DNA from: Alistipes sp.
Lineage (GTDB): Bacteria > Bacteroidota > Bacteroidia > Bacteroidales > Rikenellaceae
Reading direction: 5' to 3'
NCBI GenBank assembly: GCA_017481925.1
Contig: JAFUOK010000059.1
Location: forward strand, 1-44,358
DNA: 44,358 nucleotides
This document shows, piece after piece, positions 3,489 through 41,354 of the stretch. The notes beneath the pieces were generated by a model. That model was not told the DNA's origin and ran no database searches. It saw only the letters and a list, made by a program, of their open reading frames with translations. The translations under genes and the position numbers were made by a program. The number at the start of each line of letters is the position of its first letter. The first letter of the stretch is position 1.

Positions 3489-4085
3489 ATGTTGGAAAAT
3501 ACCTATCAAAATACACTCATCGAGGCCGGATGTGACGAGGCGGGGCGCGGATGCCTGGCCGGCAGTGTCTTTGCTGCGGCGGTGATTCTTCCGCCCGATT
3601 TTTCGCATCCCCTGCTCAATGATTCGAAGCAGATGACCGAGCGTGCCCGCAACATCCTGCGCGAAGTGATTGAGCGTGAGGCTTTGGCGTGGGCCGTTGC
3701 AGAGGTTACGGCCGAGCGTATTGATGAGATAAATATTTTGAAGGCATCTATCGAAGGTATGAATATTGCGGCCTCGCAGCTAAAGGTAAAGCCCGAGTTT
3801 TTGGCCATCGACGGCAACCGTTTTACATCGCACTGTGGTCTGCCGTATAAGTGCATTGTCAAGGGCGACGGCAAGTATGCCAACATTGCGGCGGCCTCGG
3901 TACTTGCCAAGACGCATCGTGATGAGTATATGATGCGCCTGCACGAGGAGTATCCCCACTATGGCTGGGATCGCAATAAGGGTTATCCCACCAAGGAGCA
4001 CCGACTCGCCATTCGGGAGTATGGTCTTACGCCCTATCATCGCCTGTCGTTTAACCATCTTGAAGGTCAGCTGGAGCTGTTCTGA
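3489..4085 (+). CDS. rnhB: ribonuclease HII
   Basis: 198 residues, the normal size. RNase HII cleaves RNA in RNA-DNA hybrids and removes single ribonucleotides from DNA. Visible motifs: GCDEAGRG at 14-21 with the metal-binding Asp16 and Glu17, the LNDSKQMTERAR segment, FLAIDGN with its Asp, and AAASVLAKTHRDEYM, followed by the GYPTKEH and HRLSFN signature near the end. The ATG is close to a TAACTTTG promoter element. The stop codon abuts the left arm of a palindromic repeat (4085-4204). Confidence 0.96.
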   Translation: MLENTYQNTLIEAGCDEAGRGCLAGSVFAAAVILPPDFSHPLLNDSKQMTERARNILREVIEREALAWAVAEVTAERIDEINILKASIEGMNIAASQLKVKPEFLAIDGNRFTSHCGLPYKCIVKGDGKYANIAAASVLAKTHRDEYMMRLHEEYPHYGWDRNKGYPTKEHRLAIREYGLTPYHRLSFNHLEGQLELF

Positions 4086-4204
4086 AAATCCGTCTAATGG
4101 CCTCTTTTGGCGCCTGACTTGATTTCAGGATGCTCACATACGTCAAGTATGCTCCGCTCCTTCAATCTGCGCCATTCTCAAAATAGCCTCATTATACGAA
4201 TTTT
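4085..4204 (+). repeat. 3'-end palindrome, copy 1 (after rnhB)
   Basis: Imperfect palindrome of 120 bp starting at the rnhB stop. The left arm (AAAATCCGTCTAATG...CTTTTG) pairs with the right arm (CAAAATAGCC...ATTATACGAATTTT). The central hairpin is CATAC-gtcaa-GTATG, flanked by GCTCA on the left and CTCCGC on the right. The GCTCA...CTCCGC strand is the rnhB sense strand. A diverged partial copy of the left arm (ATGG-CTCTTTTGGCGCCTG) follows at about 4214-4245. Confidence 0.8.
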
Positions 4205-4245
4205 TGCTGGCGGCAATGGTCTCTTTTGGCGCCTGGCTTGATTTT

Positions 4246-4364
4246 AAAAATAATACGTCATACCACATTTTCACTACTGATGGCCTGGCTGATAGGGTTG
4301 AAGGTTGTAAGTGAAAATGATTGGTATCTACCTTTGTTAAAATGCCTAACTGATACAGACAAAA
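4246..4364. other. spacer with no recognised gene
   Basis: AT-rich spacer between the rnhB palindrome and a bidirectional terminator. A short imperfect inverted repeat (ACCACATTTTCACTA / AGTGAAAATGATTGGT) is visible around 4262-4325. No start codon with a credible coding frame was found. Confidence 0.4.
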
Positions 4365-4400
4365 ATGGGGCTGTCCAACAAGAACGTTGAACAGCCCCAT
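4365..4400. terminator. bidirectional intrinsic terminator
   Basis: ATGGGGCTGTcCAAC pairs with GTTGaACAGCCCCAT around AAGAAC. T-tracts lie on both sides (ATTTCTTT on plus, ATTTTTG on minus). On the minus strand it ends the cupin-VOC transcript after palindrome copy 2; on the plus strand it could end rnhB. A close relative of this hairpin precedes palindrome copy 5 near 21468. Confidence 0.75.
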
Positions 4401-4411
4401 TTCTTTCGGAA

Positions 4412-4525
4412 CGTGTATAAAAAGAGGGATTTCAAGGCCTGCGAAGCCCGGAAAAGCGGAGTTTACTTGGCGTAAATGAGCATTTTAAGGGCGAGCGTAA
4501 CGCAGAAATCACCTTGTTAGACACG
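4412..4525 (-). repeat. 3'-end palindrome, copy 2 (after VOC gene)
   Basis: 114 bp with ends CGTGTATAA and TTAGACACG. The minus strand reads GCTCATTTACgccaaGTAAACTCCGC at the centre, the same core as the other copies. It lies 24 bases after the stop of the minus-strand VOC gene and before the terminator at 4365-4400, so it would be in that mRNA's 3' UTR. It is nearly identical to copy 5 (21508-21629). Confidence 0.8.
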
Positions 4526-4549
4526 TTCATCTTTCGTAAAAGAAAACTC

Positions 4550-4861
4550 TTACTTAAACTCGTTGAACTCGATAGCAACTCCCTCCTCCTCGACAAAAGC
4601 GAGCCACATATGACCCATATCAAAGGGACCGAACAGGAGTTTCGCGTCCTTTATAGCCTCCTCGATGTTAGGCACAGCGTATGCGACGTGAGCCTGCTGC
4701 TGCATCAGTTGTGGCAGTGGAGTGTCGGGCTCAAAATACAAAAACTCAATCTTGTTGGGACTTTGTGAGCAGTCGGTGATGTGAACCTTCAACGGCTCAA
4801 CATAGATCATACCCTCCATCTTCTCTTTGAGGACCATTCCTACGTGATTAAATGTTCTCAT
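4550..4861 (-). CDS. VOC/glyoxalase-like small protein
   Basis: 103 residues. The segment HVAYAVPNIEEAIKDAK (about 58-74) is typical of one beta-alpha-beta-beta-beta module of the vicinal oxygen chelate fold, and FNHVGMVLKEK at 4-14 resembles the usual first strand with its His. The C-terminal VAIEFNEF carries a Glu at the usual third metal-ligand place. Substrate unknown. The start is 21 bases after the stop of the cupin gene, in the same direction, so the two are probably co-transcribed and may act on the same sugar or oxo-compound. The call rests on fold pattern only. Confidence 0.65.
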   Translation of the reverse strand: MRTFNHVGMVLKEKMEGMIYVEPLKVHITDCSQSPNKIEFLYFEPDTPLPQLMQQQAHVAYAVPNIEEAIKDAKLLFGPFDMGHMWLAFVEEEGVAIEFNEFK

Positions 4862-4882
4862 AGTATCTCTTTTTATTTGATT

Positions 4883-5464
4883 TTATAAACTTGCATCGGG
4901 GTTGGTGAAACGCAGACCATCGTTGTCGTGGAACGTACCGTACTCGGTCACCACGGCACCCTCGTCGCCGGCCATCAGGAAGTGACGGCTCTCAATCTGC
5001 TGCAGGGCGCTGATATCACCCACCTTCATAATATGAAAATTGCTCACCGTGATGAACTTATCCTTCTGACTCTCGGGTAGTGCGGGCGGGTTGGGCGTAG
5101 GCTCGCCGATGCCGAAGTTATATACCCAGCCGTTGCGTACCTGCCAGCTCTCGTGCTTGGCGGCGTATGCCGAGGGCACATGGTAGTGCTCCACAATCAT
5201 CTGGTTGGGCAGCAGGTAGATCTCGTGGCCAAAATATTTATACTCGGGGTTATTGATCCAGAATACACCACCCATACCTACATGCTCGAAGTCGCCCAGA
5301 CCGAAGTCATTCACCCAGAAATTCTCCTCAAGGAAGGGGGTGAAGGGTATGCCATAGTGCTCGAACATATCTAAGAAGGCCTTCTTTGCCACATCTTCGT
5401 TGAATTTGCCGTCGGTGTAGTAGTCGGCATTGGTGTACTTTTTGGTGTAAGGTTTCTGTGCCAT
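4883..5464 (-). CDS. cupin-fold protein, D-lyxose isomerase-like
   Basis: 193 residues. The central block GHEIYLLPNQMIVEHYHVP (80-97) with His93 and His95, then KHESWQV with Glu105, and further histidines at 161 and 180, has the spacing of a metal-binding cupin barrel. The overall pattern recalls the D-lyxose ketol-isomerase family (COG3822), which interconverts D-lyxose and D-xylulose; the assignment is by remembered motif layout. Cytoplasmic, with no signal peptide. First gene of a two-gene unit with the VOC protein, from a promoter just upstream. The transcript would end at 4365-4400 after a palindrome. Confidence 0.6.
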   Translation of the reverse strand: MAQKPYTKKYTNADYYTDGKFNEDVAKKAFLDMFEHYGIPFTPFLEENFWVNDFGLGDFEHVGMGGVFWINNPEYKYFGHEIYLLPNQMIVEHYHVPSAYAAKHESWQVRNGWVYNFGIGEPTPNPPALPESQKDKFITVSNFHIMKVGDISALQQIESRHFLMAGDEGAVVTEYGTFHDNDGLRFTNPDASL

Positions 5465-5486
5465 AATTTTTCGGTTTTAAGTCTAT

Positions 5487-5517
5487 CAAAATTAATGTTA
5501 TTTTCCCATATCTGCAA
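5487..5517 (-). promoter_or_regulatory. promoter of the cupin-VOC pair
   Basis: The minus strand has GTTG (complement of 5514-5517), a 19-bp spacer and TAATTTTG (complement of 5487-5494). Transcription would start ~15 bases before the ATG. Confidence 0.5.
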
Positions 5518-5588
5518 CCCACAACGGGGGAAATTATATGATGTCAAATAAAAAAACGGACCGGCGCACGAGAAAAGGAATATTTTTT

Positions 5589-5596
5589 TATCTTTG
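5589..5596 (+). promoter_or_regulatory. -7 element of the surE operon
   Basis: TATCTTTG, a perfect Bacteroidota -7 box, lies 52 bases before the surE ATG. No clear -33 TTTG is seen. Confidence 0.5.
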
Positions 5597-5648
5597 TAAT
5601 GTGACATACTATCCGCCTGTGTGCATCTAAAACGATTATTTGAAGACA

Positions 5649-6422
5649 ATGTACGATAAAGATAGATTAATAGTAGTAACCAACGACGACGGCTACGAGG
5701 CTCCGGGCTTTGCCGCCGCCATCGAGGTGGCGCGCGAGTTTGGTCGTGTGGTGGCTGTGGCACCAGCCACGCCGCAGAGTGGTCGTTCGCAGGCCATAAC
5801 CATCTACGACCCGCTCTTTTTGCGTAAGCACCACAGCGAGCCGGGGCTGGAGATATACTCCTTCTCGGGCACGCCCGTCGATTGTGTGAAGTTCACCTTC
5901 GACCATATGCTCAAGGACGTGAAGGTCGATTTGGTCATCTCGGGCATCAACCACGGCTCCAACTCTACGATCAACGTCCTCTACTCGGGCACTATGGGTG
6001 CCGCCATCGAGGGTAGTTTCTACGGTTGTCCGTCGGTGGGGTTGTCGTTGCTGGACCATTCGCACGATGCCGACTTCACTGATGCCAAACGCTATGGTCG
6101 AGAAATTATCGCCTCGGTGCTGTCGAGCGAGGAGCAGCGCGAGCAGTTGTGCCTGAATGTAAATGTGCCTGCCGTGGCCGAGATCAAGGGTGTGCGTGTG
6201 TGTCGTCAGTGTCGCGGTCTGTGGCGTGAGGATTTCTTCCCGCACGTAGATCCCAATGGTCGCCAGTACTTCTGGCTCACGGGTGACTACACGAACTACG
6301 AACCCCAGGCCGAGGATACCGACGAGTGGGCATTGGCCAATGGATATGTATCGGTGGTACCCATTCAGATCGACCTTACGTCGTATCGGGATATGGACTA
6401 TTTGAATAAAATTTTAAAGTAG
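5649..6422 (+). CDS. surE: 5'/3'-nucleotidase SurE
   Basis: 257 residues from the ATG at 5649; a TTG three codons upstream is less likely. SurE dephosphorylates nucleoside monophosphates and related substrates using a divalent metal. The metal-binding motif TNDDG is at residues 11-15. SQITY-equivalent segments follow: SGRSQAIT, FSGTPVDCVKF, VDLVISGINHGSN, and SGTMGAAIEG. First gene of a plus-strand unit: the histidine kinase begins 30 bases after its stop, then the response regulator and ABC transporter follow with overlapping ends. A functional link between SurE and the two-component genes is not established. Confidence 0.95.
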   Translation: MYDKDRLIVVTNDDGYEAPGFAAAIEVAREFGRVVAVAPATPQSGRSQAITIYDPLFLRKHHSEPGLEIYSFSGTPVDCVKFTFDHMLKDVKVDLVISGINHGSNSTINVLYSGTMGAAIEGSFYGCPSVGLSLLDHSHDADFTDAKRYGREIIASVLSSEEQREQLCLNVNVPAVAEIKGVRVCRQCRGLWREDFFPHVDPNGRQYFWLTGDYTNYEPQAEDTDEWALANGYVSVVPIQIDLTSYRDMDYLNKILK

Positions 6423-6452
6423 CGGCCGCGTGTCGCAGAAAGGAGGTAGAAT

Positions 6453-7457
6453 ATGACTATTAAAATCCTGCTCTATCTGGCAATCATCGTCCAGTTCGTC
6501 GCAATGTATTATGCCGTGCGATTGGTGCGAGCCACCAAGTATAACTCGATATGGATCCTCTTCATCATCGGTTTTATGGTGCTGGCCGTACAGCGAGTGC
6601 TGCAACTATGGATGAGTTATGGCCATCCGGTGCCTATGGAGGCTTCGGTATGGTTCGATATCGTGGTGTCGATATGTGTGTCGGTGGGAATCGTTATGCT
6701 CGACCGCCTCTTTGACTATATCGACCGCCTGAACCGTCACCGCCAACTCATCGACAAGCGTATCCTCACGGCCGTGCTCCGCACCGAGGAGAAGAGCCGT
6801 GCCACCTTCTCCAAGGAGCTGCACGATGGTCTGGGCCCGTTGCTCTCGTCGGCTAAGATTTCGCTCTCGGCGCTCTCACGCACGGAGATGGATCAGGAGC
6901 GCAAGGAGATATTTGACAATACGTTGTACGTTGTGGAGGAGGCTCTGCGATCGCTGCGTGAGATATCGAACAACCTCTCGCCCCACGTGCTCTCGGATTT
7001 TGGCCTTGCGCGAGGCATCCGCAACTTTATCGACCGCTCGCAGGCGCTGCATAATGTTAAGCTGTCGTTCGCCACAAATCTGCGTGGTGAGCGCTACAAT
7101 ACCGATATTGAGGTTATCCTCTACCGTGTGGCGTGCGAGCTTGTAACCAATTCACTCAAACACTCGGGCTGTAGCGAGATACGCCTCACGCTTTCGGCTA
7201 CGGGCGATATTCTGGAGTTGCAGTATAGCGACAATGGCCGTGGCTTCAACCCGCAGGCTATGATGGATTGCGGTATGGGCCTCTCGAATATCAGTTCCCG
7301 TATCAACTCGCTCAATGGCGAGTTTGACATACGCTCGTCGAAGGGTAAGGGTATGACCGCCACCGTTAAGGTCAATGTGCGTGGCGCTTCACGTATGGAG
7401 ACCCCGCCACCCGCAATAGATAAGGCACGTCCACGAAGAAAGGAGCGCAGAGGATGA
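6453..7457 (+). CDS. membrane sensor histidine kinase, NarL/LiaS-type (HisKA_3)
   Basis: 334 residues. Two or three hydrophobic segments at about 4-23, 33-52 and 67-84 form a small sensor with almost no periplasmic domain. A short coiled coil follows, then the HisKA_3 motif FSKELHDGLGP with the phosphate-accepting His124. The ATPase domain has ELVTNSLKHS (N box), DNGRGF (G1) and GMGLSNISSRI (G2). Such kinases sense through the membrane, often membrane stress. The stop overlaps the response-regulator start as ATGA, so the two are translationally coupled. The next gene is a (broken) ABC exporter, a common target or partner for this kinase type. Confidence 0.93.
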   Translation: MTIKILLYLAIIVQFVAMYYAVRLVRATKYNSIWILFIIGFMVLAVQRVLQLWMSYGHPVPMEASVWFDIVVSICVSVGIVMLDRLFDYIDRLNRHRQLIDKRILTAVLRTEEKSRATFSKELHDGLGPLLSSAKISLSALSRTEMDQERKEIFDNTLYVVEEALRSLREISNNLSPHVLSDFGLARGIRNFIDRSQALHNVKLSFATNLRGERYNTDIEVILYRVACELVTNSLKHSGCSEIRLTLSATGDILELQYSDNGRGFNPQAMMDCGMGLSNISSRINSLNGEFDIRSSKGKGMTATVKVNVRGASRMETPPPAIDKARPRRKERRG

Positions 7458-8104
7458 TACGCGTAGCATTGGTTGATGATCACACGCTGTTCCGCAACGG
7501 GCTGAAGATGTTGCTCTCAACACACTCGGGCGTAGAGGTTGTGGCCGAGGCGGCAAGCGGCGAGGAGTTCCTCGCCGAGGTGGAGCGTGTGCGTCCCGAT
7601 GTGGTATTTATGGATTACGCTATGCCCGGCATCAATGGAGCGCAGACCACGGAGCGGGCACTTCGCATGTGTCCCGATATGAAGATCATATCGCTCACGA
7701 TGTTTGCCGACAATGCCTACTACTCGCAGATGGTGGCTTCGGGAGCAAAGGGTTTTCTGCTCAAGGACTCGGAGTTTGACGAGGTCGTGGAGGCTGTGGA
7801 GACCGTAGCCGCAGGGGGTAGTTACTTCAATGAATCGCTCTTGCAGTCGCTCTCGCAGTCGTTGCGTTCGACGGGTAACAATGCGGCCGACAACATTGCC
7901 GAGGCGGATCGTCTGTCGGAGCGAGAGATTGAGATTTTGGTCGGTATATGCCGTGGCGACTCGACACAGGAGATTGCCGACAGATTATACATTTCGAAAC
8001 GTACGGTGGATAAACACCGTGCCAATATCTTGGAGAAGAGCGGTTGCAAGAACACGGCAAGTCTTGTGGTCTATGCTATCCGCAACGGTCTGGTGGAAGT
8101 ATAA
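7454..8104 (+). CDS. NarL/LuxR-family response regulator
   Basis: 216 residues. The receiver domain (1-120) has Asp8/Asp9, the phosphorylated Asp54 in VVFMDYAMPG, Thr82 in SLTMF and Lys104 in FLLKDS. The C-terminal helix-turn-helix is LSEREIEILVGICRGDSTQE and onward to SKRTVDKHRANILEKSG, typical of LuxR/GerE. It is the partner of the kinase upstream, with a 4-base overlap. Its stop shares a base with the ABC transporter start (TAATG), so all are one transcript. Its targets cannot be read from the sequence. Confidence 0.95.
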   Translation: MIRVALVDDHTLFRNGLKMLLSTHSGVEVVAEAASGEEFLAEVERVRPDVVFMDYAMPGINGAQTTERALRMCPDMKIISLTMFADNAYYSQMVASGAKGFLLKDSEFDEVVEAVETVAAGGSYFNESLLQSLSQSLRSTGNNAADNIAEADRLSEREIEILVGICRGDSTQEIADRLYISKRTVDKHRANILEKSGCKNTASLVVYAIRNGLVEV

Positions 8105-9723
8105 TGAGTATTAGAGGATACATAAAATGGTTATGGGCTGCTGCCGAGGGCTTGCGAGCAAGGATATTCTTGCAGGCGGCTGTTGGCGTGGTGCACGTGG
8201 TCGTCTCGCTGATGTATGTCTGGACGAGCAAGCAGTTGGTCGATATTGCCACCTCGCGCGTGGAGGGCAACATCTACCTCTTCATCGTGGCTATGGTGGC
8301 CTGCATCCTCACGCAGATACTCCTCTCGACCTACGTTTCGCGTATGGAGGTGGAGAGCGAACTCGATATGAAGAACCGCTTGCGTCATCGTCTCTTCTCG
8401 CATATGATGGATAGCCGTTGGGCTTCGGGTGCCAAGATGCACACGGGCGATGTGATGAACCGTATATGGGAGGATGTGGATAATATCGCCAATACGGTCT
8501 GCGTCGTCGTGCCACAGACTACCGTTACGTGCATACAGTTTGTTGCCGCGGTGACGTTCCTTGCCATTCTGGACTATCGCCTGGCTATGGCCGTTGTGCT
8601 GATTCTGCCTACATTCCTATTGCTGAGCCGGGTCTATGCTCGTCGCATACGCCACTATACCAAGGAGATACGTGATATAGATTCGCGCGTGCAGGCTCAC
8701 ATTCAGGAGAGTATGCACCACCGTACGCTGGTCTCGTCGATGGAATATACGCCCTGCGTTGTGGAGGATCTGGAGTCTATGCAGGAGGATCTGCGTGAGA
8801 AGGTTATGCGCCGCACGGACTTCACGCTCTTCTCGCGTAAGATGATGCAGATGGGTTTCTCGGTGGGTTACCTCTCGGCATTCGTGTGGGGTGCTTTCCG
8901 CCTGCAGGCGGGTGCCGGCTATGGACTTATGACCGCCTTTATGCAACTCGCGGGTCAGGTGCAGCGTCCTATTATGGAGCTGAGCCGTCAGCTGCCCTCG
9001 TTTATTCACGTCACCACTGCCGTCGATCGCCTGATAGAGCTTACTGACCTGCCTCTCGAGGAGCGTGGCGCGGTGCATCTTGCGGGCGAGGTGGGTATTC
9101 GTATGGAGAACGTCACCTTCGCCTATAAGGAGGGCGAGAATGTATTGGAAAACTTCTCTTACGACTTTGCCGCAGGGCAGATGACTGCCGTGCTGGGACA
9201 TACGGGAGCGGGCTAGAGTACGCTTCTGAGACTTATGCTCGGCCTGATTGACCCCGCCCAAGGGTCGGCCGTGATATATAATGCGGAGCGTGAGGAGCGA
9301 CTGTCGGCACGCACACGCTGCAATGTTGGCTATGTGCCGCAGGGCAACTCGCTGATGAGTGGCACGGTGCGTAGCAACCTGCTGCTGGGCAACCCCTCGG
9401 CCACCGACGAGCAGATGTGGAAGGCTCTGCATACTGCCGTAGCAGATTTTGTGCGTGAGTTGCCCCTGGGACTTGACACCCCCTGCTCGGAGGCGGGTAT
9501 GGGATTGAGCGAGGGTCAGGCACAACGTATAGCCATTGCCCGTGCGCTGCTGCGTGAGAAGAGCGTGATACTTATGGACGAACCTACGGCGGCGTTGGAT
9601 GTAGCAACGGAGGCGCTGCTGTTGGAGCGTCTTTCGCAATATGCCAATCACCGCACTATGATTATCGTGACGCATCATCCTTCGGCGGCGGAGTTGTGTG
9701 ATGCCGTAGTGCGTGTAGATTAA
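8104..9723 (+). pseudogene. ABC transporter permease/ATPase with in-frame amber at the Walker A lysine
   Basis: An ABC exporter half-transporter of 539 codons with one in-frame stop. Residues 1-310 form a six-helix membrane domain (ABC type 1 exporter); the nucleotide-binding domain follows. The Walker A motif reads GHTGAG-stop-ST: codon 371 (9214-9216) is TAG where Lys (AAG) is required, a single A-to-T change. The frame continues intact to TAA at 9721-9723 with Q-loop (VPQGNS), signature LSEGQ, and Walker B VILMDEP followed by ALD. No other lesion is seen, so the change is recent, a sequencing error, or suppressed. Without the lysine codon the 370-residue product would be inactive as an ATPase. 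The start overlaps the response-regulator stop. A distal start at 9235 would lack Walker A and is unlikely to be functional. Confidence 0.85.
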
Positions 9724-9726
9724 AAG

Positions 9727-9845
9727 AAGCCGTCTAACAAGGTGATTTCTGCGTTACGCTTGCCCTCGAAATCCTCATTTACGCCTCAGTAAACTGCGGT
9801 TTCTCGGGCTTCGCAGGCCTTGAAATCCCTCTTGTTATACGACTT
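9727..9845 (+). repeat. 3'-end palindrome, copy 3 (after the ABC transporter)
   Basis: Arms AAGcCGTCTAACAAGgtGATTTC and GAAATCccTCTTGTTATACGACTT. The central hairpin is TTTAC-gcctca-GTAAA in the context CCTCA...CTGCGG. It starts 3 bases after the ABC transporter stop and ends 17 bases before a terminator. The C and G flanking the core are swapped relative to copy 6 (AAATC...GGTTT versus AAATG...GCTTT), a compensatory pair. Confidence 0.8.
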
Positions 9846-9862
9846 CACAAGTAGTCGAGAAA

Positions 9863-9890
9863 TAAAAAAGGAGTCCCGCTGGACTCCTTT
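9863..9890. terminator. bidirectional terminator between the ABC transporter and the DksA-like gene
   Basis: GGAGTCC-cgct-GGACTCC with an A-run before and TTTTCTT after. It can end the convergent transcripts of both neighbours. Confidence 0.8.
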
Positions 9891-9892
9891 TC

Positions 9893-10267
9893 TTACTTTC
9901 TTGCCTCTTTGGCTTCGATGCACTCCGTAGCGTGGGGAACACGCATCAGGCGCTCCTTGGGGATCAGCTTGCCTGTGGTCTTGCAGATGCCATAGGTCTT
10001 GTTCTCGATACGCACCAATGCCATCTCGAGGTTGCGGATAAACTTACTCTGGTGTGCTACCAAACGGCCCGTCTCCTCCTTCGACAGAGTGGCGGCACCC
10101 TCCTCCAGCACCTTGAAGGTGGGCGAGGTGTCGTGAGTGTCGTTGTCGTTTGCGATGTTTGCACGTAGCAAATCATAATCAGCCTTGGCCTGTTCGAGTT
10201 TCTTGAGGATCACCTGCTTGAACTCTGCCAACTCATTATCGCTATATCTTACTCTCTCTTCTGCCAT
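9893..10267 (-). CDS. DksA/TraR-family protein with degenerate zinc finger
   Basis: 124 residues. An N-terminal coiled coil (about 10-90) is followed by the DksA/TraR finger region GICKTTGKLIPKERLMRVPHATEC. The family usually has four Cys in two pairs; here Cys95 and Cys116 remain, while the other pair positions are Thr98 and Ala119. RLMRVPHAT matches the conserved R-L-x-A-x-P helix. DksA proteins bind RNA polymerase through the secondary channel and act with ppGpp. A two-Cys finger of this kind is known among family members, so the gene is probably functional. It follows ileS in the same direction but has a promoter of its own in the 88-base gap. Confidence 0.85.
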   Translation of the reverse strand: MAEERVRYSDNELAEFKQVILKKLEQAKADYDLLRANIANDNDTHDTSPTFKVLEEGAATLSKEETGRLVAHQSKFIRNLEMALVRIENKTYGICKTTGKLIPKERLMRVPHATECIEAKEARK

Positions 10268-17247: not shown

Positions 17248-19011
17248 ATGCCTATAGAGAAGCGATGGGTTGTGCGGCAGCACGGCGATCGCGAGGTTGT
17301 AGAGCGTTTGGCTACTCACCTCCGAATGTCGCCTGTTCTGACAAACCTACTTGTGCAACGAGGCATAGACACCGTAGAAAAGGCCAATAGGTTCTTTAAC
17401 CCGCAACTTGCAGATCTGCACGATCCGTTCCTGATGACGGATATGGAGCGCGCAGTGGAGCGTATCGAGCGCGCCGTCGCACGTAATGAGATGATTATGG
17501 TGTATGGCGACTACGACGTGGACGGTACGACAGCAGTGGCGTTGGTTTATAAGTTCCTCAGGCAGATAGGTCACAAAAACCTTGTTTTCTACATCCCCGA
17601 CCGTTATAACGACGGTTACGGCATATCGGTCAAGGGTATTGACTTTGCGGCCCGCAAGGGTGTTACGCTGGCCATTGCTCTGGATTGCGGTATCAAAGCC
17701 GTAGAAAAGGTTGTTTATGCGAAGCAGAAGGGTGTTGATTTCATCATCTGCGACCACCACCTCCCAGCCGACGAGATTCCCGCGGCTGTGGCTGTGCTGG
17801 ATCCCAAGCGCAACGACTGCAACTATCCGTTCAACGAGTTGTCAGGTTGTGGCGTAGGATTCAAACTCGTGCAGGCCTATGCACAGAAGCACGGTATCCC
17901 GTTCAAGGAGATCGAGCATCTGCTGGACTTGCTCGTGGTAAGTATTGCGTCCGACATCGTACCGCTTACGGGCGAGAACCGTATCCTTGCCTACTATGGC
18001 TTGGAGCGTCTGAACCGTATGCCTTCGTCGGGCCTTGGGTCGATAATCAAGATCTGTGGCCTGGAGCGCCAGACGATCACTATCGACGACATTGTATTTA
18101 AGATTGGCCCACGCATCAACGCCGCAGGACGTATGCGTATGGACGAGAACGACGAGAATGCCGCTCCGAGTGGTGGCTTTGCCGCTGTGGAGTTGCTCGT
18201 TGAGGGTAACGAGAAGCAGGCTCGTGAGTTCTGCGACGTGATTGACTCGTACAATCAGGATCGTAAGAATATCGACCGCAGCGTCACGCAGGAGGCTCAC
18301 GACTACATCGAGTCGAACCCTCACCTGAAGGACCGCAAGTGCACGGTGATCTATAATCCCAAGTGGATGAAGGGCATCGTGGGTATTGTTGCCTCGCGCC
18401 TTATCGAGACCTACTACCGTCCCACGGTGGTGCTGACGATGAGCAACGGCTTCGTGACGGGTTCGGCACGTTCGGTGCCCGGCTTTGACCTGTATCAGGC
18501 TGTTGAGTCGTGCTCGGATCTGCTGGAAAACTTCGGTGGACACATGTACGCCGCAGGTCTTACGATGCGTCCCGAGAATGTTGAGGCCTTCAAGGAGCGT
18601 TTCAACGCCTACGTGGAGAAGAATATCGATCCGCAGATATTGGTTCCGCAGGTGGATATTGACAGCGAGTTGCTCTTCTCGGACATCACGCCCGCGTTCC
18701 ATCGCCAGCTCAATAGTTTCCAGCCCTTCGGCCCGGGAAACACGGCGCCTGTCTTTGCGACGTATGGCGCAAGTTCGCACGGTGAGGCAAAGCTGGTGGG
18801 AGCCGAAATGGAGCATCTGCGTATGGACCTGGTGCAGAAGCAGAAGCCTAATACATCGATACAGACCATCGCCTTCCAGCAGCCCACACATTATGAGTGG
18901 GTGCGCTCGGGACGTCCTATCGATGTCTGCTACCAGATTGTGGAGAACCACTATCGAGGAACTGTGACTACGCAGTTGCGAATTAAGGATATTAAACCCG
19001 TAGTAAAATAA
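17248..19011 (+). CDS. recJ: single-stranded-DNA-specific exonuclease RecJ
   Basis: 587 residues, the usual size. 5'-3' exonuclease on single-stranded DNA in recombination and mismatch repair. The DHH phosphoesterase domain shows VYGDYDVDGTTA (85-97, metal-binding Asp88, Asp90 and Asp92), IALDCG, and CDHH with Asp169-His171. The DHHA1 domain has GIVGIVASRLIE and GFVTGSARSVPGFD followed by FGGHMYAAGL. The C-terminal OB-type domain ends the protein. The stop codon is followed directly by palindrome copy 4, then by the RNase P RNA. Confidence 0.97.
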   Translation: MPIEKRWVVRQHGDREVVERLATHLRMSPVLTNLLVQRGIDTVEKANRFFNPQLADLHDPFLMTDMERAVERIERAVARNEMIMVYGDYDVDGTTAVALVYKFLRQIGHKNLVFYIPDRYNDGYGISVKGIDFAARKGVTLAIALDCGIKAVEKVVYAKQKGVDFIICDHHLPADEIPAAVAVLDPKRNDCNYPFNELSGCGVGFKLVQAYAQKHGIPFKEIEHLLDLLVVSIASDIVPLTGENRILAYYGLERLNRMPSSGLGSIIKICGLERQTITIDDIVFKIGPRINAAGRMRMDENDENAAPSGGFAAVELLVEGNEKQAREFCDVIDSYNQDRKNIDRSVTQEAHDYIESNPHLKDRKCTVIYNPKWMKGIVGIVASRLIETYYRPTVVLTMSNGFVTGSARSVPGFDLYQAVESCSDLLENFGGHMYAAGLTMRPENVEAFKERFNAYVEKNIDPQILVPQVDIDSELLFSDITPAFHRQLNSFQPFGPGNTAPVFATYGASSHGEAKLVGAEMEHLRMDLVQKQKPNTSIQTIAFQQPTHYEWVRSGRPIDVCYQIVENHYRGTVTTQLRIKDIKPVVK

Positions 19012-19132
19012 AAATTGCCTAATTGGGCTGTTTTGTCGTTACGCTTGTCGAGCAAATGCTCACATACGAGTAGTATGCTCCGCTTTGCTCGCCGTCGCAA
19101 GCCTAAAAACAGCCTCAATTATCCAATTTTTG
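19010..19132 (+). repeat. 3'-end palindrome, copy 4 (after recJ)
   Basis: Begins at the recJ stop. Arms AAAAATTGccTAATTGgGGCTG-type and the complementary CAGCCTCAATTATCCAATTTTTG; inner stem GAGCAAA/TTTGCTC; central hairpin CATAC-gagta-GTATG with GCTCA and CTCCGC flanks. The arms share almost nothing in sequence with copies 3 or 6 but pair as well. Confidence 0.8.
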
Positions 19133-19279: not shown

Positions 19280-19676
19280 GTAGCGGGCTTATCATAGAAA
19301 AATTGCAAGTACGCTCTATCGCTGCCCGTAAGGGGAGAGGAAAGTCCGAGCAACACAGAGCGCCGCACGAGTTAACGGCTCGACGTTCGTGAGGGTGTAG
19401 TAGCGTAACAGAGAATAACCGCCTATGTCGGCTTTCGGGCCGGCAGGTAAGGGTGAAAAGGTGGGGTAAGAGCCCACCGCGACGGCAGTAATGTTCGTCG
19501 GCAGTACGCCTTGCGGGTTGCAAGACCACGTATACCGACAATTAAGGGTTGCTCGTCCAATGTCGGGGGGTAGGTTGCTAGAGGCTGTGGGTGACCACAG
19601 TCGTAGATAAATGATAGAGGCCCTGCAAAGGGTACAGAACTCGGCTTATAGTATTTGCAGTGTTATGAGCCCGCTT
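19280..19676 (+). ncRNA. rnpB: RNase P RNA (bacterial class A)
   Basis: The catalytic RNA that removes 5' leaders of pre-tRNAs. Conserved blocks are present: GAGGAAAGTCCGAGC with ACACAGAGC (P4/J3-4 region) near 19336-19362 and ACAGAACTCGGCTTAT near 19634. P1 is formed by GCGGGCT at the 5' end (19283-19289) and AGCCCGC at the 3' end (19668-19674). Ends are estimated from P1. The protein subunit gene rnpA is also in this window, at 40537. Confidence 0.93.
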
Positions 19677-21354: not shown

Positions 21355-21390
21355 ATATAACACCTATAACACTTATTACACTTAAAATAT
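21355..21390. repeat. short AT-rich iterated motif
   Basis: CACCTATAACACTTATTACACTTA is a run of 9-10 bp iterations, closely resembling 911-934 in the rRNA-flanking spacer. Significance unknown. Confidence 0.45.
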
Positions 21391-21397
21391 ATATAAA

Positions 21398-21665
21398 AAA
21401 TAAGAGGGCCCCGCGTCCATATTTGTAGGCATTGCACTCTGCACCCACGGAGCGTAGCGACCGAAAGGGGCTGTCCAACAAGAAAGTTGAATAGCCTCTT
21501 TTCTTTCAGAGCGTGTATAACAAGAGGGATTTCAAGGCTTGCGAAGTCCGAAAAAGCGGAGTTTACTCGGCGTAAATGAGCATTTTAAGGGCGAGCGTAA
21601 CGCAGAAATCACCGTGTTAGACACGCTCTTTAGAGGAGGGTATAAAATAAGAGGGCCCCGCGTCC
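21398..21665. repeat. 21-bp direct repeats flanking palindrome copy 5
   Basis: AAATAAGAGGGCCCCGCGTCC occurs at 21398-21418 and again at 21645-21665. The right copy is half of the rpmH terminator hairpin; the left copy is an orphan half. The ~226 bp between them carry a terminator-like hairpin and palindrome copy 5. This could be a duplicated insertion target or an incomplete tandem duplication. Confidence 0.6.
21468..21629 (-). repeat. 3'-end palindrome, copy 5, with attached hairpin
   Basis: The palindrome proper is 21508-21629: ends AGAGCGTG and CACGCTCT, core on the minus strand GCTCATTTACgccgaGTAAACTCCGC. The hairpin GGGGCTGTCCAACAAGAAaG...AGCC just before it (21468-21496) matches the terminator beside copy 2, so the repeated unit shared with 4365-4525 is about 160 bp. 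Sense orientation agrees with rpmH (minus), which ends at 21700. Confidence 0.8.
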
Positions 21666-21682
21666 GGTGCCCTCTTATTTTT
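21645..21682 (-). terminator. rpmH terminator
   Basis: AATAAGAGGGC on one side pairs with GCCCTCTTATT across ~13 bases, T-rich on the minus strand (ATTTTATA), 18 bases after the rpmH stop. Confidence 0.75.
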
Positions 21683-21699
21683 CCGACCGAGTCGAAAAA

Positions 21700-21867
21700 T
21701 TAAGCATACTTGAATGTTGACTCATCTGATACGGTCAACTTCTTGCGTCCCTTTGCGCGACGCGCTGCCAATACCTTGCGGCCGTTAGCAGTAGCCATTC
21801 TCTGACGGAATCCATGCTTATTGATTCTCTTGCGACGAGAAGGCTGGTAAGTTCTCTTCATTGCCAT
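21700..21867 (-). CDS. rpmH: 50S ribosomal protein L34
   Basis: 55 residues. Translation gives [20 protein letters not shown], followed by [20 protein letters not shown] and a short tail, the classic L34 sequence. L34 is a small basic protein of the large subunit. In many bacteria rpmH precedes rnpA; here rnpA is 19 kb away (40537), so the usual rpmH-rnpA pair is broken. It has its own promoter and terminator. Confidence 0.97.
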
Positions 21868-34457: not shown

Positions 34458-34460
34458 CCT

Positions 34461-35327: not shown

Positions 35328-35348
35328 ACAGAATAAAACATTGTGATT

Positions 35349-35798: not shown

Positions 35799-35811
35799 AA
35801 CTTTTACTAAG

Positions 35812-37476: not shown

Positions 37477-37488
37477 TCGTTTGGAGAG

Positions 37489-38664
37489 ATGAAATTTTCG
37501 GGTCTTAAAATATCGTTCCGTAGCCGCATCGTGGTCATCGCCATCGGTGTGGTTCTGGCTGCTTTGTCGCTGGTTTATACCTATAAACTTGCCGACATCC
37601 TGCGCCAGAAGGAGCAGAACGATGTGAACCTGTGGGTGGCGGCTATGGAGCGTGTGAGCCGCGAGGCCTTCGGCAACTATCTGGTTGATCCGCTCATCTC
37701 GCATATCGTCAGCACGCACAACAACATCCCCTTCATCATCACGGACGAGAACCTGGAACTTGTGATGAGCAACCGTATCGACGAGGGTATATTGGACGAC
37801 CCCGAACGTTTCCGCCATAAACTCAACGAGTTGACCGAGGAGAATACCCCCCGCACGGTGCGACTTATGTGGCCGAGCAACCGTAGCCATATTATTTTCT
37901 ATGGGCGGTCGGACCTGCTGACGGCACTCTATTACTTCCCCTATGTGCAGTGGTTGATTATCTTCATCTTTTTGATTTTCACCTACATCGCTCTGCAATC
38001 CACCAAGCAGGACGAGCAGAACCGTGTGTGGATCGGCCTTGCGAAGGAGACGGCGCATCAGCTGGGTACGCCCATATCGTCACTTCTGGGCTGGACCGAG
38101 GTGCTGCGCTCGATGGAGGTCGATTCGGCAGCTGTCGATGAGATGAACAAGGATTTGCAGCATCTGATGAAGATTGTCGATCGCTTCTCGAAGATCGGTT
38201 CGGAGACCGTGCTCACGCCCAACAGCGTGAATGAGGTTGTGGGTGAGACGGTGATGTATTTCCGTAAGCGTGTGCCACGCAACGTGACACTCTCGTATAA
38301 TGGCCTGGCTATGGCACCCGTGAAGGCGAATCTGAACGTAGCTTTGTTTGAGTGGGTTGTGGAGAACCTGATGAAAAATTCGCTCGATGCTATGCAGGGT
38401 CAGGGGGAGTTGGAGGTGCGCCTCTCGTCGAACGAGAAGTCGGTCTTCATCGACGTCTGCGACACGGGTAAGGGTATTGCCAAGAGTAACTGGAAGCGCA
38501 TCTTCGAACCCGGCTTCACTACCAAGACACGTGGCTGGGGTCTGGGCCTCTCGCTTGCGCGCCGTATCGTGGAGGATTATCACCATGGAAAGATCGCCGT
38601 CGCCAAGAGTGAGGTGGGTCGCGGCACCACTTTCCGTATAACGCTTAAACGTATTTTCGAGTAA
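37489..38664 (+). CDS. sensor histidine kinase
   Basis: 391 residues. Two membrane helices (about 12-33 and 154-170) enclose a periplasmic sensor domain of ~120 residues. The phosphate-accepting His190 lies in AKETAHQLGTPISSLLGW. The ATPase domain has ENLMKNSLDAM (N box, 292-302), DTGKGI (325-330) and GWGLGLSLARRI (349-360). No response-regulator gene is next to it, so the partner is elsewhere. Its stop overlaps the DUF4271 start by one base. Confidence 0.93.
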   Translation: MKFSGLKISFRSRIVVIAIGVVLAALSLVYTYKLADILRQKEQNDVNLWVAAMERVSREAFGNYLVDPLISHIVSTHNNIPFIITDENLELVMSNRIDEGILDDPERFRHKLNELTEENTPRTVRLMWPSNRSHIIFYGRSDLLTALYYFPYVQWLIIFIFLIFTYIALQSTKQDEQNRVWIGLAKETAHQLGTPISSLLGWTEVLRSMEVDSAAVDEMNKDLQHLMKIVDRFSKIGSETVLTPNSVNEVVGETVMYFRKRVPRNVTLSYNGLAMAPVKANLNVALFEWVVENLMKNSLDAMQGQGELEVRLSSNEKSVFIDVCDTGKGIAKSNWKRIFEPGFTTKTRGWGLGLSLARRIVEDYHHGKIAVAKSEVGRGTTFRITLKRIFE

Positions 38665-39647
38665 TGGCCATAGATTCACTCCGCCCATCGGGTATTGACA
38701 CCCTCTCCGAGCGTGCGCTTCGTCGTCTGACGGATCGCTGGACGGGTGAGTTGTATTCGGCTGATTCGGTTGAGGCCATATCTCACAATGAGGCCGCCAC
38801 GAGCGATACGTTTAACTCTATCGTTGAGCGTTGGCAGCGTGCGCGCGAGCTCTACCACGACGCCTCGGTGGAGGATGTGATGGGTGCAGGCAGTTCGTTG
38901 GCCGAGGGCGTTGTGCCGGCCGATATGGCAGCGCAGAGCGATATTATGGCCGAGCAGATGATGCACTCTACGACGTGGTGGAATCCTGCAGCGTGGGGTG
39001 CCGAGCAGTATAATCTGCTGATTGCGGTACTCTTTGTTTACTATATATTTTGTCTTTATCGTTATTTCGACGATGTAGTGGCTCTCTTCTCGTCGGCTTT
39101 CCGCCACGAGGTGGTTCCGTCGGGACGTGCTGCCGAGCGTCGTCGCAGCGATATTTTCTATGGTTCGCTGGGTAAACTCTTTATGCTGGGCACGTGTCTG
39201 GTGGGAGTTATTGTGGCGGGCAGTGTGGTGCGCTTCGGCGGAGGCTTACCAGGGGAGGTTGTGTTCTATGCTCCGTTTGCGGGAGTGGCTCTATTCCTGA
39301 TAGTTGTCATCGCGCAAAACCTGCTGCTCGGCATGGTGGGTGTCGTCACCCGCTCGATGGGCGAGGTGGCATCGTTGCTTCGCATTCGGTTGGTTTATTT
39401 CGTTTTGGCAACGCTTCTGGCGGCGCCATTGATGATGATAGCTACCGTGGTTCAGACCCAATCGTCCAATCTTTGGTTCGAAGTGGGTTGCGTGGCCGTC
39501 GGTGTAGCCGTTATTTTGTTTGTGAGAGAGAGTATTGGATTCTTTATTTCCAAAAAAGTTTCGATTTTGCATTGGATTTTGTACCTTTGCACCGTCGAAA
39601 TTTTGCCGTTAAGTCTCCTGTGGCAGGCGGCGAAAAGCTTGAGGTAG
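38664..39647 (+). CDS. DUF4271 membrane protein
   Basis: 327 residues. A soluble N-terminal part of ~110 residues is followed by six or seven membrane helices, ending with FFISKKVSILHWILYLCTVEILPLSLLW, the hallmark of DUF4271. In Bacteroidota this family sits just before hemD, as here. Function not known. A -7-like box, TACCTTTG (39582-39589), inside its 3' end could give an extra promoter for hemD. Confidence 0.85.
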   Translation: MAIDSLRPSGIDTLSERALRRLTDRWTGELYSADSVEAISHNEAATSDTFNSIVERWQRARELYHDASVEDVMGAGSSLAEGVVPADMAAQSDIMAEQMMHSTTWWNPAAWGAEQYNLLIAVLFVYYIFCLYRYFDDVVALFSSAFRHEVVPSGRAAERRRSDIFYGSLGKLFMLGTCLVGVIVAGSVVRFGGGLPGEVVFYAPFAGVALFLIVVIAQNLLLGMVGVVTRSMGEVASLLRIRLVYFVLATLLAAPLMMIATVVQTQSSNLWFEVGCVAVGVAVILFVRESIGFFISKKVSILHWILYLCTVEILPLSLLWQAAKSLR

Positions 39648-39659
39648 TAATATAATAAA

Positions 39660-40529
39660 ATGTTAATGGTTAAGAAAGTTTTGATTTCACAGCCGCGTCC
39701 TGCGGTGTTGGAAAAGTCACCTTTTTACGAAGTATCGACAAAGCATAAAGTCGAGGTTGATTATAAACCCCTGATTCGCGTTGTGGGCGTTACGTTGAAG
39801 GAGTTCCGCTCGCAGCGTATCGAGATCCTTGATCATACAGCCGTAATTTTTACATCTCGTACTACGGTAGATAGTTTCTTCAAGATTTGTGAGGAGGCGC
39901 GCATCACCGTTCCCGAGACTATGAAATACATCTGTAATACGGAGGCCGTAGCACTCTACCTACAGAAGTATATCGTCTATCGCAAGCGTAAGATTTCGTT
40001 TGCCGACGGCACATTTACTAACCTCTTGGAGCTGATCATCAAGCATAAGAGCGAGCGTTTCCTATTGGCACTGAGCGAACCGCATAAGCCCGAATTGCCC
40101 GAGACGCTGGAGAAGCTGAAGATGAATTTCGACCCCGTGATCCTGGCGCGTACCGTTGCTGCCGATATGGAGGATCTCAGGCCTGCGGAGTATGACGTGA
40201 TGGCACTCTACTCGCCCTCTGACGTGAAGAGCGTCGTGGAGCACTTCTCGGTGGATGAACTGCCCGTGGTGGCTACCTTCGGTGAGGCTACGCTGCGTGT
40301 AGCGCTGGAGGCTGGTATGAAGGTCAAGGCGTCGGCACCTACGCCCGAGGCCCCCTCTATGGCCAAGGCTCTGGATCTCTACATCACCAAGATCAAGAAG
40401 GGTGAGGATGTTCAGGAGGTGGAGATTCGCACCGACGATGCCAAGGAGGAGTTCATCCGCACGCAGCAGAATAAGTTGGCCAAGAAGAGCCGCACCCGTA
40501 ACACCACTACCTCTACGGAGAAGAAATAA
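39660..40529 (+). CDS. hemD: uroporphyrinogen-III synthase-like protein
   Basis: 289 residues; ATG at 39660, with another at 39666. Two-lobed fold typical of HemD: ISQPRP, HTAVIFTSRTTVDSFF (58-73), YICNTEAVALYL, and in the second lobe YDVMALYSPSDVKSVVEHF and VVATFGEATLRVALEAGM. HemD closes the tetrapyrrole ring. The C-terminal ~50 residues form a basic, low-complexity tail (KKSRTRNTTTSTEKK) not needed for the fold. Bacteroidota often keep this gene even without a full haem pathway, so its true activity is uncertain. Confidence 0.85.
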   Translation: MLMVKKVLISQPRPAVLEKSPFYEVSTKHKVEVDYKPLIRVVGVTLKEFRSQRIEILDHTAVIFTSRTTVDSFFKICEEARITVPETMKYICNTEAVALYLQKYIVYRKRKISFADGTFTNLLELIIKHKSERFLLALSEPHKPELPETLEKLKMNFDPVILARTVAADMEDLRPAEYDVMALYSPSDVKSVVEHFSVDELPVVATFGEATLRVALEAGMKVKASAPTPEAPSMAKALDLYITKIKKGEDVQEVEIRTDDAKEEFIRTQQNKLAKKSRTRNTTTSTEKK

Positions 40530-40536
40530 GATAACT

Positions 40537-41013
40537 ATGCCCGATTATACCCTCCCACGCGCCGAACGCTTGCGTTCGCTTAAGGCCATACGTCGTATGT
40601 TCGACGAGGGACATTCGGGCTTTGTCTATCCTTTTCGCTATGTGAGCCTTGTCGAGAGGGCAGATGCGAAGAGGGCAGATGCGAAGAGGGCAGATGCAGA
40701 GAGGGCAGATGCAGAGAGTCCAGATGTGGAGATGACGGCTGCTGTGGAGACGATCGATGCGGAGTCGCGTCGTGTGGAGGTGATGTTCTCGGTACCCAAG
40801 AAGTTTCACAAGCGAGCCAACCGCCGCAACCTGTTGAAGCGTCGTGCGCGCGAGGCCTACCGTCTGCATCGTGAGCCACTGCGTGAGCGCCTGCAGCAGC
40901 AGGGTGCAACACTTCGCGTGGCGCTGATATATTCGACCAAGGAGTGTCACACCTATAAAACCATCAGCTATGCCGTGCAACGAATCCTGGAGCAGATTTC
41001 TCAGCGTCTGTAA
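40537..41013 (+). CDS. rnpA: ribonuclease P protein component with repeat insertion
   Basis: 158 residues from the ATG at 40537. RnpA helps RNase P RNA bind pre-tRNA. The core is present: N-terminal [48 protein letters not shown] with the RNR motif, and the ALIYST strand. Between the first and second strands there is an insert of ~35 residues, mostly [10 protein letters not shown] repeats encoded by a 15-bp minisatellite. The gene is larger than usual (~115-130 residues) because of it. yidD starts inside its 3' end (44-base overlap). Confidence 0.94.
40655..40729 (+). repeat. 15-bp minisatellite in rnpA
   Basis: Five units of AGAGGGCAGATGCRR: four near identical (40655-40714) and one degenerate (40715-40729). 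Unit length is a multiple of three, so copy changes keep the frame. It encodes (E/K)RADA repeats. Confidence 0.9.
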
Positions 41014-41230
41014 GCGCGTGAGTGCGTGGCCACTTCTGGCTCTGGTCAAATTTTATCAATACTGCATATCTCCCTACACGCCACCCGCGTGCCGTTTTAC
41101 CCCCACCTGTTCGCAGTATGCTGTCGAGGCACTGCGCAAGTATGGTCCGCTGAAGGGTAGCTGGCTTACGCTCAAACGTCTTTCGCGTTGTCATCCGTGG
41201 GGTGGGAGTGGTTATGATCCTGTCCCATAG
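40970..41230 (+). CDS. yidD: membrane protein insertion efficiency factor YidD
   Basis: 86 residues from the ATG at 40970, inside rnpA; later start codons are possible. Family signature is full: [19 protein letters not shown], then [16 protein letters not shown], and [19 protein letters not shown] ending DPVP. YidD helps YidC insert membrane proteins. The rnpA-yidD pair is the usual bacterial order, without rpmH here. The stop is followed after one base by palindrome copy 6. Confidence 0.93.
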
Positions 41231-41231
41231 G

Positions 41232-41354
41232 CGAAGTGACTATAAAGGCGAATTTCGGCGTTATGCTTGCGTTCGAAATGCTCATTTACGCCTCAGTAAA
41301 CTCCGCTTTCTCACGCTTCGCAAGCCTTGAACTTCATCCTTTATAGTCACTTCG
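41232..41354 (+). repeat. 3'-end palindrome, copy 6 (after yidD)
   Basis: Outer arms CGAAGTGACTATAAAG and CTTTATAGTCACTTCG are a perfect 16-bp inverted repeat. Inner stem GCTTGCG/CGCAAGC; central hairpin TTTAC-gcctca-GTAAA with GCTCA and CTCCGC flanks. TATAAAGGCGAATTT from the left arm recurs as a direct repeat at 41367-41381. The element lies between yidD and the terminator at 41399. Confidence 0.85.

What the first reader, a model, noticed from the sequence alone, without database searches (positions are those of the whole stretch)
4085..41354. A family of six covarying palindromes at gene 3' ends
Copies at 4085, 4412, 9727, 19010, 21508 and 41232 share a core (GCTCA or CCTCA, a 5-bp stem, a 5-6 base loop, then CTCCGC or CTGCGG). 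The central stem is TTTAC/GTAAA in four and CATAC/GTATG in two; a flanking C-G pair in copy 3 is G-C in copy 6. Outer arms differ almost entirely in sequence between groups yet pair in each (16 bp perfect in copy 6). All six have the same core strand on the sense strand of the upstream neighbouring gene. Five start within 25 bases of a stop codon, and copies 1, 2, 3 and 6 lie between a stop and an intrinsic terminator. That points to selection on RNA structure in 3' UTRs (stability, end processing, protein binding) or to a palindromic mobile element with a preference for gene ends. I do not recognise it as a named family.
Basis: seen in the sequence. Interest (0 to 1): 0.8.

Follow-up and report, generated by a model that had tools for sequence, protein, structure and literature searches.

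The report
Widespread mobile palindromes after stop codons
The six hairpins are copies of a mobile DNA repeat about 120 bases long, which turns up in dozens of copies in this gut bacterium, usually right behind the stop codon of a gene, and whose folded core recurs in distantly related bacteria such as Pseudomonas and Rickettsia; no description of it was found in the searches made here.

Summary
A covariance model from the six copies finds 61 copies in the window's own 1.9 Mb assembly. In 57 full-length copies, 35 of 42 pairs change on both sides and 92.7% of cells stay paired. By a crude gene caller 50 of 57 copies follow a same-strand gene, 41 of these 50 starting -3 to +7 nt from its stop codon. 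Copy number is patchy (0 to 87 in 25 genus genomes) and sites are filled or empty between relatives, so the element is mobile or readily gained and lost. The core recurs, 9 to 150 matches each, in 17 of 17 further genomes chosen by a core-motif match, including Pseudomonas and Rickettsia. The antisense strand folds better in 57 of 57 copies, against simple selection on the sense 3' UTR RNA. No RAYT-type transposase was detected in 14 of 14 genus genomes, though 8 of 10 tested carriers outside the genus have one. I read it as a new superfamily of REP/MITE-like palindromes, moved in trans by an unidentified factor.

The parts
4086..4203 (+). copy 1, directly after the rnhB stop codon (CATAC/GTATG apex)
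4215..4259 (+). partial second copy (5' part only)
   Evidence: repeat D9; extent read
4364..4407 (-). terminator-like hairpin behind copy 2; together with copy 2 it forms a 165-nt unit repeated at 21464-21628 (92% identical)
   Evidence: D1, I24
4409..4528 (-). copy 2, 21 nt after the stop of the minus-strand 103-aa ORF 4550-4861
9726..9846 (+). copy 3, 2 nt after the stop of an ORF with an ABC ATPase domain (9235-9723)
9866..9893 (+). intrinsic-terminator-like hairpin after copy 3
   Evidence: read
19011..19130 (+). copy 4, overlapping the last base of the recJ stop codon; RNase P RNA follows at 19303
21509..21628 (-). copy 5, about 70 nt behind rpmH (21700-21867) and its terminator
21641..21683 (-). 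rpmH terminator; its distal 25 nt recur at 21394-21418, on the other side of copy 5
   Evidence: (D18)
41233..41353 (+). copy 6, 2 nt after the yidD stop codon (perfect outer arms)
41399..41432 (+). intrinsic-terminator-like hairpin after copy 6
   Evidence: read

Best explanation
The six sequences are copies of a non-autonomous, mobile palindromic element of about 118-123 bp. SHOWN: it is one long hairpin whose arms are almost free in sequence but co-vary, with fixed features: a 5-bp apex stem, a CTCA//CTSCG internal loop, a 2x2 TC//TC loop, and a CGTTA//GCCTTG-like loop. It is present or absent at the same gene ends in related species, near-identical copies sit in unrelated flanks, and in the window's genome it sits at the start of the 3' UTR in the sense orientation. 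INFERRED: it moves as a unit; the structure that matters is the folded antisense (bottom) strand, recognised by a factor that acts in trans, as transposases recognise REP or IS200 hairpins. Insertion falls into the transcribed but untranslated stretch between stop codon and terminator, possibly because that stretch is ribosome-free and prone to expose single-stranded DNA. The moving enzyme is not identified. In Anaerophaga the same core travels inside a conventional MITE with terminal inverted repeats and a 4-bp target duplication.
For: 61 copies in the own assembly. Covariation: 35 of 42 pairs, 92.7% paired against at most 50.3% when the partner column is slid, 0 of 500 shuffles. Patchy copy number, 0-87 in 25 genus genomes. 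Presence and absence at recJ, rnhB, rpmH and other 3' ends between relatives, with copy 5 missing in the sister genome G010 whose RecJ is 99% identical. A 96% identical pair with both 50-nt flanks at background identity. G011: the 17 copies fetched (of 36 matches) average 97% identity and 16 of 17 have a same-strand upstream gene, so the placement is there in young copies. Start within -3 to +7 nt of the stop in 41 of 50. Bottom strand folds better in 57 of 57 own copies and 92 of 97 from other loci. Same core in 17 of 17 motif-selected genomes; matches at E<=1e-6 in 30 of 296 genomes of the own phylum and 55 of 299 of the phylum of Pseudomonas (12 candidates scored per genome).
Against: No transposase or other mobilising gene was linked to it. 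No target-site duplication is seen in the own copies. Copies in Anaerophaga show little gene-end preference (13 same-strand, 8 opposite, 2 undetermined of 23), in Marinilabilia 1 same-strand and 3 opposite, and a plasmid copy in Pseudomonas veronii is not behind a stop codon, so the placement is not universal. In the other gut-bacteroidete loci only 23 of 47 same-strand copies start within -3 to +7 nt of the stop. The strand evidence is mixed: over the 39 mostly Watson-Crick pairs AC exceeds GU (59 to 22), but over all 42 pairs GU exceeds AC (124 to 74) because two positions are mostly or nearly always G-U; by column 14 v 6 (p=0.12) and 20 v 9 (p=0.06). Copies share ancestry, so 57 of 57 is not 57 independent observations. 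Selection after random insertion could also place copies in the 3' UTR.
Confidence: 0.68

Rival explanations
1. A cis-acting RNA element of 3' UTRs: the sense-strand hairpin controls mRNA stability, 3'-end processing or ribosome release, and selection on RNA structure causes the covariation; E. coli REPs close to stop codons are reported to stall ribosomes.
For: Sense orientation and stop-codon adjacency; a terminator-like site within 130 nt downstream in 38 of 57 (shuffled 12 of 57); over all 42 pairs the sense strand has more GU than AC cells (124 to 74). PMC12306157 (passages) reports that E. coli REPs within 15 nt of a stop codon stall ribosomes.
Against: Not kept at the same genes (recJ 4 of 24, rnhB 3 of 21 genomes looked at). 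The antisense strand is the better folder in 57 of 57 and its internal loops are the purine-rich ones. The core is also kept in Anaerophaga MITEs with little gene-end preference.
Confidence: 0.15
2. Covariation without any function: long quasi-palindromes keep correcting one arm against the other by template switching in replication, and the element is just an old repeat.
For: Outer arms are free in sequence yet pair in each copy; the orthologous rnhB copies of G000 and G016 differ in the inner arms yet both fold into the long hairpin.
Against: Mismatched loops persist at fixed positions in all or nearly all of 57 copies and recur in Pseudomonadota; template switching should erase them.
Confidence: 0.07
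3. A classical MITE family throughout: different DDE insertion sequences in each lineage move it through its terminal inverted repeats.
For: In Anaerophaga the unit has ends TAGTGTCTGTCCATAAAG/CTTTATAGACAGGCACTA, and 16 of 23 scored copies show an exact 4-bp duplication (AATT, AAAT, ATTT or ATAT). Tannerella, Cytophagaceae and Lentimicrobiaceae copies end in long inverted repeats.
Against: In the window's genome the outermost 8 bp are highly variable between copies and no duplication is seen. PF05598 (IS1182-type by recall) was absent in 8 of 8 tested genus genomes. No autonomous partner was recognised among 12 read of 18 end-pattern matches in Anaerophaga.
Confidence: 0.1

Closest known systems
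REP elements and their RAYT (Y1) transposases; GTAG and CGTC superfamilies of Di Nocera 2013 (PMC3733652, passages read)
   Same: High-copy extragenic palindromes across phyla, imperfect hairpin, no gene inside; some E. coli REPs lie close behind stop codons (PMC12306157 passages).
   Different: Three to six times longer (about 120 against 20-40 bp), no fixed GTAG or CGTC tag at the end, no Y1 transposase found in the genus.
Bacterial MITEs (ERIC, Correia, RUP, QMITE2 of Coxiella; review PMC10969869, passages read)
   Same: Short, palindromic, mostly intergenic; the review notes QMITE2 mainly in 3' untranslated regions. The Anaerophaga form is a MITE by structure.
   Different: In the window's genome no target duplication and highly variable ends; the conserved part is the apex and loops, not the ends.
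Rickettsia palindromic elements (RPE; passages)
   Same: Palindromes of about 150 bp in Rickettsia; the Rickettsia endosymbiont here carries 92 matches.
   Different: RPEs are known for insertion inside genes; whether any RPE family is this element was not tested.
Integron attC sites (recalled, no call)
   Same: Folded single-strand palindromes behind cassette stop codons, with the bottom strand as the active one.
   Different: attC is conserved at its base and free at its tip; here the tip is conserved and the base free. Copies are dispersed, not in cassette arrays.
Pseudomonas fluorescens intergenic repeat families R0-R200 (PMC2718517, passages)
   Same: MITE-like intergenic hairpins with bias to convergent gene ends.
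   Different: Consensus sequences sit in a supplement that was not read (no supplement look-ups allowed); identity with the Pseudomonas copies here is untested.

Membership tests
REP / RAYT system | 20-40 bp palindrome | tested here: not met
   118-123 bp in 57 copies
REP / RAYT system | GTAG or CGTC tag at one end | tested here: not met
   no fixed tetranucleotide at either end of 57 copies
REP / RAYT system | Y1 (PF01797) transposase in the genome | tested here: not met
   0 of 14 genus genomes; outside the genus 8 of 10 carriers tested do have one (not G043, not G056), without a test of linkage
MITE | terminal inverted repeats of fixed sequence | tested here: inconclusive
   met in Anaerophaga; not in the window's genome, where outermost pairs vary
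MITE | target-site duplication | tested here: inconclusive
   exact 4 bp in 16 of 23 scored Anaerophaga copies; none above the permuted control outside the element itself in own copies
MITE | related autonomous insertion sequence | tested here: inconclusive
   PF05598 absent in 8 genus genomes; no partner recognised in 12 Anaerophaga loci read; other transposase families not searched
Known Rfam RNA families | match to a curated model | tested here: not met
   no match over the elements in the window at gathering thresholds; in 10 loci with copies at E<=0.1 only a tRNA and two sub-threshold Thr_leader hits at the edge of one copy
Integron attC | R boxes RYYYAAC/GTTRRRY at the base (recalled) | tested here: not met
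   by reading: a GTCTAAC/GTTATAC-like base occurs in part of the 57 copies only and not in the copies of other phyla printed
Rickettsia palindromic elements | sequence match to RPE-1 to RPE-8 | not tested
   no RPE consensus was at hand
ERIC, YPAL, RUP, NEMIS | sequence match to their consensus | not tested

The most novel reading that the evidence does not exclude
A previously undescribed superfamily of mobile DNA, spread over Bacteroidota and Pseudomonadota, defined not by end sequences or an encoded enzyme but by the shape of one folded strand (apex stem plus three fixed internal loops), moved by a still unknown, widely distributed structure-recognising factor and, in some lineages, inserted into the ribosome-free stretch between stop codon and terminator.
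Probability: 0.35. Interest if true: 0.88.

Novelty: new variant of a known kind. Interest (0 to 1): 0.72.

Why it matters
If right, one structural core is shared between phyla, in dozens to at least 150 matches per genome in some of them, without an identified transposase, which makes 'what moves it and how does it come to lie at stop codons' a directly testable question. It also supplies a covariance model by which these repeats, which no Rfam model matched here, can be annotated, and it warns that strong covariation in a bacterial 3' UTR need not mean a regulatory RNA.

Tried and rejected
RAYT/Y1 partner: searched in the own genome and in 24 genomes; none in 14 genus genomes, present in 8 of 10 carriers outside it. 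PF05598 DDE: none in 8 genus genomes; 3 of 14 genomes searched have one, all outside the genus. Autonomous element with Anaerophaga ends: 18 pattern matches in G044 and 0 in G045; of the 12 loci read, 9 were variants of the same element and 3 lay beside other open frames; no transposase was recognised, but only the frames of L365 were listed and none was scanned with Pfam. attC idea: dropped because the base is variable. Intrastrand triplex repeats (PMC4666352, outline and passages): a different, 37-nt GC-rich motif. Target duplication in own copies: the best 3-4 nt signals lie inside the palindrome ends, none outside. Literature searches that found no description of the element: (six core strings as text; 65 papers, 40 listed; by their titles plant, animal, oral and clinical work for the most part, none opened). 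Phages: no match to one copy. Plasmids: one Pseudomonas copy matches 8 records in part (Pseudomonas 6, Halomonas 1, Fukatsuia 1); four were looked at. Viral contigs: 4 match the core pattern, followed only into.

Rows dropped before counts: of the 63 listed own matches, 57 full-length ones were used for covariation, orientation and folding; dropped were three partial (C74:27723, C49:8495, C11:9604), two with an internal deletion (C16:14942, C21:5416) and one weak (C17:33903, E 0.42). In one search, 97 of 109 rows of the cross-genome alignment were long enough. In one search, matches spanning 110 nt or less, copies within 150 nt of a locus end and the viral contigs were left out. The 17 genomes were chosen because they carry the core pattern, so 17 of 17 is not a prevalence. 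Genus genomes not looked at: G013 at recJ; G006, G013, G019 at rnhB, and G010 without a match.
Full report
What was checked. The six palindromes were read directly and folded singly: each gives one long hairpin, with much the same internal loops in copies 1-4 and 6; copy 5's sense strand folds differently towards the tip. On the MAFFT alignment of the six, 24 of 42 predicted pairs have a compensated double change. The covariance model R1 recovers all six and no further copy in the window's contig C54.

How many. In the own assembly (1.90 Mb, 78 contigs, 84% complete) there are 61 matches at E<=0.001 and 63 at E<=1. In the 25 genomes of the genus, own included, counts run from 0 (7 genomes) to 87. 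Two contig lengths shared between genus genomes and records titled 'Alistipes sp.' (675,441 and 19,123 bases) place the genome among Alistipes-like Rikenellaceae; that is an inference.

Covariation. Over 57 full-length copies, 35 of 42 pairs change on both sides in at least one copy, 441 cells are double changes (shuffled mean 116), 92.7% of cells are paired (shuffled 73.0%; partner column slid by 1-3 columns, 36.8-50.3%) and 0 of 500 shuffles reach any of the five measures. This alignment was fitted to the model, which leans towards the structure; the six-copy MAFFT alignment was not. Loops do not drift: the unpaired TCA and CT.C of the apex loop are invariant or nearly so in 57 copies.

Where it sits. 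With a crude longest-ORF caller, 50 of 57 copies have a same-strand gene upstream; two of the seven exceptions (C54:9726, C54:41233) are miscalls, since Pfam supports an ABC ATPase ending at 9723 and YidD ending at 41230. The distance from stop codon to first paired base is -3 to +7 nt in 41 of those 50. Orientation must be judged with care: 29 of 57 lie between convergent genes, where either orientation has a same-strand upstream gene. Between co-directional genes it is 21 for and 6 against, 4 once the two miscalls are set aside; one copy lies between divergent genes; between convergent genes the 5' end is the one nearer to a stop in 25 of 29 (my count from the rows). A terminator-like site follows within 130 nt on the sense strand in 38 of 57 and on the antisense strand in 35 of 57, against 12 of 57 for shuffled sequence and 12 of 57 upstream. 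In a set of loci from other genomes, mostly MAGs titled Alistipes, Rikenellaceae or Bacteroidaceae, 47 of 52 have a same-strand upstream gene, but only 23 of the 47 start within -3 to +7 nt of the stop.

Presence and absence. At recJ, copies stand directly behind the stop in G000 and G010, and 4 nt behind it in G001 (a different copy); in G016 a match starts right behind the recJ fragment by coordinates. That is 4 of 24 genus genomes looked at. At rnhB it is 3 of 21 (G000, G016, G014); the inner arms differ, and the G016 copy still folds into the long hairpin, while the G014 sense strand pairs its outer arm and folds otherwise inside. Copy 5 behind rpmH is absent in G010, whose RecJ is 99% identical to the own one, and in G016, G001 and G014; G015 has a copy there in the opposite orientation. 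At copy 3's site G016 carries a copy of another subtype. The gene upstream of copy 2 has in G001 a fragment of another copy directly at its stop, and in G014 only a terminator. The pair C42:18357/C2:29354 is 96% identical with both 50-nt flanks at background (0.56 and 0.52; background means 0.56 and 0.57), so there the unit is the palindrome; but seven copies of one subfamily also share the terminator behind them (downstream 0.66-0.88), and in G011 the downstream flanks are somewhat alike (0.70, upstream 0.59) (D1). Of 36 matches in G011, 17 were fetched; they average 97% identity, and 16 of 17 have a same-strand gene upstream, in 13 of these at 7-38 nt. No target duplication is found around own copies.

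Beyond the genus. Model R2 finds 9 to 150 matches at E<=0.001 (150 is the scoring cap) in 17 of 17 such genomes. In evenly drawn samples, with only 12 candidates scored per genome, 30 of 296 genomes of the own phylum (own included; 27 of the 30 in one family, f34; these loci were not read) and 55 of 299 of the phylum of Pseudomonas insulae match at E<=1e-6. Of 19 loci read from the latter search, each from another genome, 15 show the strict core, and the other four show it with another apex pair on reading. The strict core does not occur in 56 kb from loci of zero-copy relatives.

A different way of moving elsewhere. In Anaerophaga the core lies in a unit of about 169 bp with inverted repeats at its ends; 16 of 23 scored copies have an exact 4-bp duplication (AATT, AAAT, ATTT, ATAT), and several are in tandem: a conventional MITE. 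Upstream genes there are same-strand in 13, opposite in 8 and undetermined in 2 of 23. The Pseudomonas veronii plasmid copy is not behind an annotated stop.

Which strand. The reverse complement folds better in 57 of 57 own copies (mean -43.9 against -36.9 kcal/mol with RNA parameters; 56 of 57 with DNA parameters) and in 92 of 97 from other loci. Its loops are the purine-rich ones (sense strand 1378 pyrimidines and 404 purines in internal loops). The wobble test is mixed: over the 39 pairs that are at least 60% Watson-Crick, AC exceeds GU on the sense strand (59 to 22), but over all 42 pairs GU exceeds AC (124 to 74), because two positions are mostly or nearly always G-U; by column it is 14 to 6, p=0.12, and 20 to 9, p=0.06 in the wider set. 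On balance the fold energies favour a folded antisense strand, DNA or RNA, over the sense 3' UTR RNA.

Mechanism, as committed to. Most likely a trans-acting factor recognises the folded bottom strand and inserts the element into the transcribed but ribosome-free stretch behind a stop codon. The placement and the fold are shown; movement as such, the factor, single-strandedness and the reason for the target are inferred. RAYT and PF05598-type partners are not supported within the genus; outside it, 8 of 10 carriers tested have a Y1 gene, whose role was not tested.

Relation to known things. REPs, MITEs, RPEs and P. fluorescens repeats are the neighbours (passages read). None was shown to be this family, and six literature searches found no description of it, in a library that lacks most subscription papers; identity with RPE, ERIC, YPAL or the P. 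fluorescens R families remains untested and is the main risk to novelty.

Noticed in passing
window 4364-4407 and 21464-21505; many loci of G000: Several terminators behind copies in this genome share nearly the same stem (GGGGCTGTYCAAC...GTTGGACAGCCCC); G011 uses another stereotyped stem (GGGGAYGRCTAA...TTAGYCATCCCC), also seen in similar form behind its rnhB, where no element is present.
   Followed up: partly
L078 and L080 (recJ 3' ends of G017 and G011): Other palindromes of about 125 nt sit directly behind the recJ stop, with an apex GTAC...GTAC and no CTCA//CTSCG loop: possibly a second family with the same habit.
   Followed up: no
window 21394-21418 and 21641-21665: A 25-nt direct repeat of half the rpmH terminator flanks the stretch that holds copy 5 and its terminator.
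   Followed up: no
window 40639-40742: A 15-nt tandem repeat (GAGAGGGCAGATGC-like, about five units) upstream of yidD.
   Followed up: no
window 906-934 and 21356-21384: Short AT-rich repeats of period 9 (TATAACACTTATTACACTTA) at two places; a somewhat similar stretch lies behind copy C74:34460.
   Followed up: no
G000:C16:14942-15008 and C21:5416-5484: Two copies have lost the whole apex but keep outer arms that look paired.
   Followed up: no
L235-L238 (viral contigs): Four IMG/VR contigs carry the core pattern, one (L238) as a full 121-nt match with long inverted-repeat ends.
   Followed up: partly
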